The notes under the pieces: generated by a model | What the model was told of the DNA's origin: nothing | Database searches by the model: none | What the model saw: the letters and a program-made list of their open reading frames with translations, nothing else | Position numbers and translations under genes: made by a program | In this document: in pieces, positions 15,078 through 15,843 of the stretch | How the letters are laid out: each line of letters starts with the position of its first letter | Numbering within the stretch: the first letter of the stretch is position 1 | Source: Desmodus rotundus | Lineage: Eukaryota > Chordata > Mammalia > Chiroptera > Phyllostomidae | Assembly: GCF_022682495.2 (NCBI RefSeq) | Contig: NW_026527279.1 | Span: forward strand, 1-64,000 | DNA: 64,000 bases | Direction: 5' to 3'

Positions 15078-15843
15078 ATGGAAGAAGCATGGATGGAGGA
15101 GCCAGAGGTGCAGCAGGAGGAGGTACAGGAGCCAAGGATTGAGGATCCAGGGACGAGCGGAGCACAGGTGAGCAGGAGCCCCTCAGGTCTTGCTGGTCCA
15201 GGTGAGTCCGCAACTCGCCTTCAACCCGCCGCCATTACACAGCCCACAGCCCGGCTCCAGCTCTTACCCACCGACCTGGGGGGTTGGCTGTGCCTCTAAA
15301 CATGGTCTTCGTAAATCACGTCCCACTAACCCATCGTCTCCCCTGACCCTTTGTCCCTGTCAGGATATCCGGACCATCCCTGCTCCGTTTGACATATCCA
15401 CCGCTCTGAGGCGACTGCACAAGGAACTGACAGACATCACAAACGACCCCCCGCCCATGTGCTTCGCGGGGCCGGTGGACGACAGCATGTTCACATGGAA
15501 GGGGACCATTATGGGTCCCGCCGACAGCCCTTACGAGGGTGGGCTGTTCCGCCTGAACATACAATTCCCACCCAATTACCCCTTCAGGCCGCCGCTTATT
15601 TACTTCACAACCCCGATCTACCACCCCAATATCAACCGAAGGGGATATATCTGTGTAGATATTCTCAGGTCCCAGTGGTCTCCTATACTGACCATATCCA
15701 AACTCTTGCTATCCATCACCTCCATGCTATGTGACCCCAACCCCAACGACCCCTTTGTTCCGTCCATTGGGAGAATGTACTTACAGGACAGGGATGCCTT
15801 TGATACCATGGCCCGAGCTTGGACCAAGAAGTATGCTAGGTGA
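15078..15843 (+). CDS. UBE2D-like ubiquitin-conjugating enzyme, copy 2 (two exons, complete)
   Basis: Predicted join of 15078-15167 and 15364-15843, giving 189 residues. The intron (15168-15363, GTGAGC...CAG, phase 0) is inferred from splice signals and frame continuity. The start is the first in-frame ATG, with G at -3 and G at +4. Residues 1-30 are acidic and rich in Glu, Gln and Pro; residues 43-189 align without gaps to the 147-residue UBE2D proteins, about 60% identical by eye against my recollection of UBE2D1. HPN is 117-119, catalytic Cys127, Asp129, Leu146, Asn156, Asp159 (UBE2D Cys85, Asp87, Leu104, Asn114, Asp117). Phe104 and Pro137 of the E3 face are kept, but Ala96 is Ile138 and backside Ser22 is Phe64. 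UBE2D genes normally have several introns in the fold, so an uninterrupted fold suggests retrocopy origin. UBE2E also has N-terminal extensions, but its motif is HCN rather than HPN, so UBE2D is preferred. Confidence 0.88.

What the first reader, a model, noticed from the sequence alone, without database searches (positions are those of the whole stretch)
15078..15843. Diverged, intron-shifted UBE2D relative with an acquired acidic 5' exon
The whole 147-residue E2 fold sits in one exon, unlike parental UBE2D genes, and is preceded by a separate exon coding 30 acidic residues joined in phase 0. This fits a retrocopy that captured a new 5' exon and promoter and was then amplified. All five exon 2 copies and all four exon 1 copies are intact, which argues for function. 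By eye the core is only about 60% identical to UBE2D1, although human UBE2D1-D4 are far closer to each other.
Basis: partly seen in the sequence, partly recalled or inferred. Interest (0 to 1): 0.75.

Follow-up and report, generated by a model that had tools for sequence, protein, structure and literature searches.

The report
Vampire-bat Y-amplified ubiquitin-conjugating enzyme gene
The sequence is one stretch of a large tandem array of a ubiquitin-conjugating enzyme gene in the common vampire bat, an old single-exon copy of a UBE2D gene joined to a new acidic first exon; its closest relatives sit in big arrays on the Y chromosome, so it is probably a male-germline gene, although expression was not tested.

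Summary
Each 15.29-kb unit holds a 30-codon acidic exon, a 196-197 bp GT-AG intron and a 159-codon exon carrying a whole UBC fold with catalytic Cys and HPN. The core is 60.5% identical to human UBE2D1 and 64.6% to UBE2D2. An exon 2 motif occurs 207 times genome-wide (<=3 mismatches, control 0). Three paralogous families (A, the window; B; C) share the two-exon anatomy. B and C lie on contigs that carry SRY, one of them also ZFY- and KDM5-type genes, so they are Y-linked. Family A contigs are unplaced but share motif types and a satellite with an SRY contig, so A is probably Y-linked too. dN/dS between families is 0.26-0.28, and a P. hastatus protein has a like acidic start, so this looks like a functional family rather than decayed copies. 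A CRE about 185 bp upstream suggests spermatid expression (inferred). In the bat clade I drew, 7 of 22 proteins lost the catalytic Cys. The nearest known kind is the Y-ampliconic testis gene family; my limited open-access searches found no Y-amplified UBE2D. Expression, enzymatic activity and the X or autosomal ancestor are untested.

The parts
14897..14904 (+). CRE-like octamer TGATGTCA, 181 bp upstream of the ATG; the perfect CRE TGACGTCA stands 186 bp upstream in families B and C
   Evidence: string match; the link to CREM-driven spermatid genes is recalled knowledge
15078..15167 (+). exon 1, acidic 30-residue N-terminal extension, copy 2
   Evidence: same-length exon in families B and C; a like 30-residue start in the P. 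hastatus protein P0003 (its DNA was not seen)
15168..15363 (+). 196-bp GT-AG intron, phase 0
   Evidence: 190-208 bp in families B and C
15364..15843 (+). exon 2: 12-residue linker plus 147-residue UBC fold (HPN, catalytic Cys), with stop codon
15873..15878 (+). AATAAA poly-A signal, same place in the A, B and C sequences compared
72..551 (+). exon 2, copy 1 (its exon 1 would lie before the window)
30374..30463 (+). exon 1, copy 3
30660..31139 (+). exon 2, copy 3 (D40H of exon 2)
45667..45756 (+). exon 1, copy 4
45954..46433 (+). exon 2, copy 4 (D40H, I90S of exon 2)
60955..61044 (+). exon 1, copy 5
61242..61721 (+). exon 2, copy 5 (D40H of exon 2)
1..64000 (+). head-to-tail array of 15.288-15.296 kb units; the four full units are 99.61-99.94% identical; the array runs off both ends of the window
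   Evidence: further copies at C142:76529 and 91875

Best explanation
This is a Desmodus rotundus member of a bat gene family that arose from a UBE2D mRNA copy, acquired a 5' exon coding an acidic tail together with a promoter, and was amplified on the Y chromosome into several tandem and inverted arrays. Shown: the anatomy, the genome-wide motif count, Y-linkage of families B and C, and fewer amino-acid changes between families than neutrality predicts. Inferred: the mRNA-copy origin, Y-linkage of the window's own family A (about 0.9), transcription in the male germ line (about 0.75), and that the protein is an active E2 that hands ubiquitin to a RING-type E3 in spermatids, with the acidic tail steering it to basic chromatin or a partner (about 0.45). 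High copy number would keep the dose high and let arrays repair each other by conversion on a chromosome that mostly does not recombine.
For: Copies: the motif CAGGTCCCAGTGGTCTCCTATAMTGACCATATCCA has 207 places at <=3 mismatches in 2.12 Gb (135 forward, 72 reverse; reversed control 0). Only 100 are listed, all exact: 43 on C15, 18 on C66, 39 on C77; the list runs in contig order and none is on C1-C14. Protein search: 150 of 316 candidates scored: 25 family A (C66 16, C142 7, C320 2), 123 family B, 2 family C; a stop in 1 of 150, one further match truncated. Y: C15 (6,231,549 bp) carries a second Zfx/Zfy-type gene besides the one on C14 (101.5 Mb), a KDM5-type JmjN exon and SRY; NCBI's identical Desmodus SRY protein lies on a contig of exactly that length. 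C77, with B arrays, carries an SRY-like ORF of equal score. A's link to the Y: C66 carries A-type places plus three with the B/C form of the motif, and a 3-kb sample of its 123-bp satellite is 95% identical to that of C77. Selection: NG86 dN/dS A-B 0.27, A-C 0.26, B-C 0.28; amino-acid differences 34, 29 and 25 against neutral means 49.4, 42.0 and 37.6 (s.d. 3.5, 3.3, 3.1; 4000 simulations each). Exon 1 is found intact in 43 of 45 rows of A and B loci, some loci counted more than once; the other 2 rows are one locus at a contig start; also in C. NCBI's model P0001 uses the same junction. CRE in B and C, with one change in A; AATAAA in all three sequences.
Against: No transcript, expression or protein evidence. 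Family A contigs are unplaced; the tests whether the C66/C77 satellite is confined to the Y and whether an X-linked homologue exists (query P0008) did not complete (tool busy). No JmjN hit was listed on C14, the presumed X, and the KDM5-type hit on C15 has an equal twin on unplaced C363, so that marker is less clean than SRY. The three coding sequences compared are intact copies, so absence of stops is partly selected; dN/dS less so. In A-C the lowest of 4000 neutral runs equals the observed 29. Seven of 22 bat relatives lost the catalytic Cys, so conjugation is not what selection always keeps. D117 is changed in B and C, S22 in A. Gene conversion between families could distort dN and dS. Motif places are not whole genes.
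Confidence: 0.72

Rival explanations
1. A macrosatellite-like array: units are kept alike by array homogenisation only, and the open frames are relics with no protein function.
For: Units are 99.61-99.94% identical over the whole 15.3 kb, not just the gene; C66 and C77 also hold a 123-bp satellite; 2 of 25 scored family A copies are broken.
Against: Between families amino-acid change is 3.9-4.4 s.d. below the neutral mean; exon 1, intron, splice sites, poly-A signal and frame persist in A, B and C, and an acidic 30-residue start in a P. hastatus protein.
Confidence: 0.12
2. The protein is a pseudo-E2 or decoy (UEV-like): it binds ubiquitin, E1 or E3s, but its main role is not conjugation.
For: Seven of 22 bat sequences in the same clade lost Cys85 (5 His in one subclade, 1 Trp, 1 Ser) in otherwise open frames; the E3-facing A96 is Ile in the Desmodus/Artibeus subclade, and S22 (backside site, recalled) is Phe in A.
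Against: Cys85, Asn77, Asp87, Ile88, Phe62 and Pro95 are kept in Desmodus A, B and C; of the 12 distinct exon 2 translations, 11 reach the Cys and all 11 keep it.
Confidence: 0.2
3. Family A is X-linked or pseudoautosomal, facing the Y-linked B arrays, as in the mouse Slx/Sly pair.
For: C66, C142 and C320 are unplaced; A and B differ by about 20% in flanking non-coding DNA, so they have been apart for long.
Against: The 100 listed exact motif places include none on C14, the X-sized contig with the other Zfx/Zfy-type gene; C66 also carries B/C-type motifs and a satellite found on an SRY contig.
Confidence: 0.08

Closest known systems
UBE2D (UbcH5) ubiquitin-conjugating enzymes
   Same: UBC fold, HPN motif, catalytic Cys, F62, P95; best sequence and fold matches in the PDB.
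   Different: 60-65% identity where D1 and D2 share 89%; core in one exon; acidic 30-residue tail; 36-38 of 125 positions invariant in four canonical sequences are changed, the start Met counted among them.
UBE2E-type E2s (UBE2D-like core behind an N-terminal extension; recalled)
   Same: Architecture: extension plus UBE2D-like core; UBE2E1 chains appear among the fold matches.
   Different: The core matches UBE2D chains better (59-65% against 54-55% identity), and the extension is acidic; likeness of architecture only.
Rodent Ube2d2b (testis gene; retrogene by recall)
   Same: UBE2D-like, high testis transcript level, knockout mice fertile (PMC6735960, passages read). NCBI names the Desmodus protein 'E2 D2B-like'.
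   Different: Orthology was not tested; amplification and an acidic exon are not mentioned in the passages read.
Mammalian Y-ampliconic testis families (TSPY, Sly/Ssty, horse ETSTY7, bovine HSFY/ZNF280BY)
   Same: Many near-identical, tandem and inverted copies on the Y; ETSTY7 is a testis-limited Y array (PMC6063916, passages read).
   Different: Here the amplified gene is a ubiquitin E2; 'ube2' and 'ubiquitin' do not occur in the main text of the horse Y paper.
UBE2DNL (human X-linked UBE2D-like pseudogene; recalled)
   Same: UBE2D-derived and sex-linked, by recall.
   Different: No UBE2DNL sequence was compared, so the relationship is untested.

Membership tests
UBE2D subfamily of E2 enzymes | UBC fold with HPN and catalytic Cys | tested here: met
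   (mean pLDDT 75)
UBE2D subfamily of E2 enzymes | nearest sequence relatives are UBE2D proteins | tested here: met
   The 60 PDB sequences listed are nearly all UBE2D1-3 or fusions with them, D2 first. The tree held UBE2D-like rows and one more distant row only, with a weak root split (72/30), so the exact parent is open
UBE2D subfamily of E2 enzymes | near-invariant sequence (about 90% within the subfamily) | tested here: not met
   89/147 to D1, 95/147 to D2; D1-D2 131/147. I therefore call it UBE2D-derived, not a canonical UBE2D
UBE2D subfamily of E2 enzymes | multi-exon gene | tested here: not met
   core in one exon; parental exon structure is recalled, not seen. A full-length UBE2D2 query found no genomic match better than the A/B/C copies at 65-66% among 150 of 332 candidates scored
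UBE2D subfamily of E2 enzymes | accepts and transfers ubiquitin | not testable with these tools
   needs an assay
Retrogene | coding core without the parental introns | tested here: met
   (parental introns by recall)
Retrogene | poly-A tract and target-site duplication | tested here: inconclusive
   no A-tract seen in the 111-117 bp shown after the stop in A, B, C; duplications were not searched
Y-ampliconic gene family | many near-identical copies on the Y | tested here: met
   families B and C on SRY contigs C15 and C77
Y-ampliconic gene family | the window's own family A lies on the Y | tested here: inconclusive
   unplaced contigs; indirect links only
Y-ampliconic gene family | testis-specific expression | not testable with these tools
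   only a CRE and an NCBI gene model

The most novel reading that the evidence does not exclude
A ubiquitin-conjugating enzyme has become the currency of a sex-chromosome arms race in noctilionoid bats: the vampire bat Y carries on the order of two hundred copies of an acid-tailed E2 that reprograms spermatid protein ubiquitination in its own favour, while sister lineages in other bats turned the same protein into catalytically dead pseudo-E2s (Cys to His, Trp or Ser) that may act as decoys.
Probability: 0.22. Interest if true: 0.82.

Novelty: new variant of a known kind. Interest (0 to 1): 0.62.

Why it matters
UBE2D is among the most conserved proteins of eukaryotes (recalled). Here a derived copy has changed at about 30% of the sites invariant in four canonical sequences while staying under selection, in arrays with about two hundred motif places, B and C of them on the Y. 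Relatives that lost the catalytic Cys give a natural series for asking what an E2 does besides conjugation. It makes the question whether ubiquitin machinery is a target of sex-chromosome conflict directly testable in bats.

Tried and rejected
Rejected: chance ORF (E2 core, splice sites and poly-A signal recur in three families). Rejected: a recent retrocopy of a modern UBE2D (too diverged; no better genomic match to UBE2D2 among 150 of 332 candidates scored). Rejected for B and C, and thought unlikely for A: an autosomal array (SRY on C15 and C77). Rejected as proof: contig-length matching of SRY in other bats. The 120 proteins listed (of 184) include no SRY on the P. hastatus (12,364,843), Pteronotus (7,207,681) or Artibeus (9,006,039) contigs that hold relatives, so Y-linkage outside Desmodus is unproven. 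Led nowhere: TRF and Rfam on the window (0 rows each); paper searches for UBE2D with ampliconic, Y or X terms (0 papers), Desmodus with UBE2D (0), bat X-ampliconic terms (0; 98 papers, no bat paper among the 25 listed titles), Y/bat/Desmodus/multicopy (2 papers, 1 listed, a civet genome), a broader Y search (470 papers, 25 listed). The library is open-access only.

The dN/dS script failed part-way because exon 1 of family C was not found; it was mended and rerun. The structure model is modest (27 sequences; mean pLDDT 75, the other four models 65 to 47) and adds only the fold.

Full report
What is there. The window is G000:C142:1-64000, a head-to-tail array of 15.288-15.296 kb units; the four full units are 99.61-99.94% identical. 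Each unit holds one two-exon gene on the + strand. Copy 2: exon 1 at 15078-15167, intron 15168-15363, exon 2 at 15364-15843, AATAAA at 15873. Exon 2 codes a 12-residue linker and the whole 147-residue UBC fold. In the window 5 of 5 exon 2 copies are open and 4 of 4 exon 1 copies are identical; exon 2 differences between copies are D40H, I90S and two silent changes. Intron lengths are 196, 196, 197 and 197.

Whose genome. NCBI's protein P0001, 'ubiquitin-conjugating enzyme E2 D2B-like [Desmodus rotundus]', 99% identical over 97% of the query, lies on a contig of 96,577 bp, the length of C142. NCBI's Desmodus SRY protein lies on two contigs, the longest 6,231,549 bp, the length of C15. NCBI's E2 model has the same exon junction but starts at the sixth residue of mine, a Met; a Met at my start is found in A, B, C and in P. 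hastatus P0003, so I prefer it.

How much. A protein search with exon 2 gave 316 candidates, of which 150 were scored: 25 copies of family A (97-100% identity; C66 16, C142 7, C320 2), 123 of family B (83-84%, unit about 17.2 kb) and 2 of family C (85%). A 35-base motif gave 207 places at up to 3 mismatches and 0 for the reversed control. Only 100 places are listed, all exact: 43 on C15, 18 on C66, 39 on C77. The list runs in contig order and holds none on C1-C14; places with mismatches there are not excluded. In one search the copies on C77 run + from 0.42 to 1.17 Mb and - from 1.27 to 1.99 Mb, and family C is an inverted pair on C15 at 5.656 and 5.897 Mb: inverted-repeat layouts. Family A runs to the end of C66 (2,646,863 bp; last exon 2 at 2,646,376-2,646,852), so the array is longer than assembled there.

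Which chromosome. A Zfx/Zfy-type domain is found on C14, a 101.5-Mb contig, and again on C15 of 6.2 Mb; further pieces with stops are on C4. A KDM5-type JmjN exon is on C15 at 6.156 Mb, with an equal hit on unplaced C363; no JmjN hit was listed on C14. An SRY-like HMG box in a 210-aa open frame is on C15 at 31.9 kb and on C77 at 2.438 Mb, and another in a 226-aa frame on C332; the C15 ORF is SRY. Families B and C are therefore Y-linked. Family A sits on unplaced contigs. C66 also carries three places with the B/C form of the motif (2146959, 2221372, 2364420), and at 1.0 Mb it holds a 123-bp satellite 95% identical to the one at C77:0.1 Mb (3 kb of each seen). I infer that A is on the Y as well; the search that would have tested whether the satellite is Y-only did not complete.

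Is it under selection. A and B units are homologous over most of their length, main pieces 77-88% identical. Against non-coding JC distances of 0.13-0.28 (intron, 600 bp up, 350 bp down), dN is 0.094 (A-B), 0.075 (A-C) and 0.069 (B-C), dS 0.346, 0.292 and 0.243, dN/dS 0.27, 0.26 and 0.28. Amino-acid differences are 34, 29 and 25, against neutral simulations of 49.4, 42.0 and 37.6 (s.d. 3.5, 3.3, 3.1; minima 37, 29, 28 in 4000 runs each): 3.9-4.4 s.d. below the mean. 85-89% of the neutral runs had a stop, but the sequences compared were intact ones, so that part is biased. Exon 1 alone has dN/dS 0.32-0.55 on 90 bases, too short to weigh. dS above the non-coding distance may reflect CpG content or conversion.

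Relatives. In a tree of 34 rows that I chose and the Desmodus loci, 22 bat sequences (Desmodus 3, Phyllostomus 4, Artibeus 2, Glossophaga 2, Sturnira 2, Pteronotus 5, unnamed source 4, counted as bat for falling in this clade) form one clade, support 100/97, stem 0.28. The Desmodus families group with unnamed P0002, Artibeus P0004 and unnamed P0005 (99/96). Horse, camel, marmot, gundi and Pteropus UBE2D-like proteins do not join the clade, and the root split is weak (72/30), so the parent is not settled. The P. hastatus protein P0003 starts with 30 residues (12 D/E, 15 of 30 identical to A) joined at Q|D like Desmodus; I saw its protein, not its DNA, so the exon boundary is inferred. Most other bat records are models that begin near the start of exon 2, so their exon 1 is unknown. 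Seven of the 22 have lost Cys85: His in P0003, P0012, P0011, P0010 and P0131, which form one subclade (95/94), Trp in P0014, Ser in P0129; Asn77, Phe62 and Pro95 are kept in 22 of 22.

Residues. Desmodus A, B and C keep C85, N77, D87, I88, F62, P95 and K101. They change A96 to Ile (also P0002, P0004, P0005), K4 to Arg and K63 to Arg; A has S22F; D117 is His in B and Asn in C. The roles of these sites (E3 face, backside ubiquitin site, lysine activation) are recalled. The model of exon 2 has mean pLDDT 75 and matches UBE2D structures best.

Mechanism. Most likely an active E2 of the male germ line. The CRE TGACGTCA 186 bp upstream in B and C, and TGATGTCA 181 bp upstream in A, fits CREM-driven spermatid genes (recalled). 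UBE2D2 is the partner of PHF7 in PDB entries 8jwj and 8jwu; PHF7 as a spermatid histone ligase is recalled. An acidic tail could steer the E2 to histones, protamines or a partner. None of this is shown here.

Known or new. Y-ampliconic testis families are a known kind. A review of Y functions (PMC8489898, ten passages seen) names Uba1y and Usp9y; those passages name no E2. Ten paper searches were made: searches returned 0 papers; others (10 papers; 98, 25 listed; 2; 2, 1 listed; 470, 25 listed) showed in their listings no paper on a Y-amplified UBE2D. The library holds open-access papers only, so this is weak evidence of absence. In PMC11593721 one passage calls mouse Ube2dnl a possible pseudogene. 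In PMC6735960 mouse Ube2d2b is high in testis and its knockout males bred (passages).

Noticed in passing
P0003, P0010, P0011, P0012, P0131 (His), P0014 (Trp), P0129 (Ser): Repeated loss of the catalytic Cys85 in relatives, those named being noctilionoid bats, in frames otherwise open: candidate pseudo-E2s.
   Followed up: partly
G000:C15:31891, C77:2438448, C332:15205: SRY-like ORFs on three contigs; on C15 and C77 the ORF lies about 448 kb from the nearest listed family B copy, so this may be a duplicated or palindromic SRY region or an assembly duplicate.
   Followed up: no
window 8001-10500: Ten 250-bp bins 84-93% identical between units A and B, against 67-85% in the other bins outside the gene: conversion, a younger insert or a second functional element.
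   Followed up: no
G000:C66:1000001-1003000 and C77:100001-103000: 123-bp satellite, 95% identical between the two contigs; candidate Y heterochromatin repeat.
   Followed up: partly
G000:C15:6156462 and C363:103232: Equal KDM5-type JmjN hits on the Y contig and on an unplaced contig, and none listed on C14.
   Followed up: no
G000:C5:71.010-71.061 Mb: Four JmjN exons at about 17-kb spacing.
   Followed up: no
G000:C5:60.52-60.83 Mb: Eight HMG-box open frames of 346-408 aa in both orientations, a small cluster.
   Followed up: no
P0229: Phyllostomus discolor SRY is recorded on three contigs, the longest 95 Mb, odd for a bat Y.
   Followed up: no
G000:C142:91875 and C66:2423858: Two broken family A copies: a frameshift and a stop.
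   Followed up: partly
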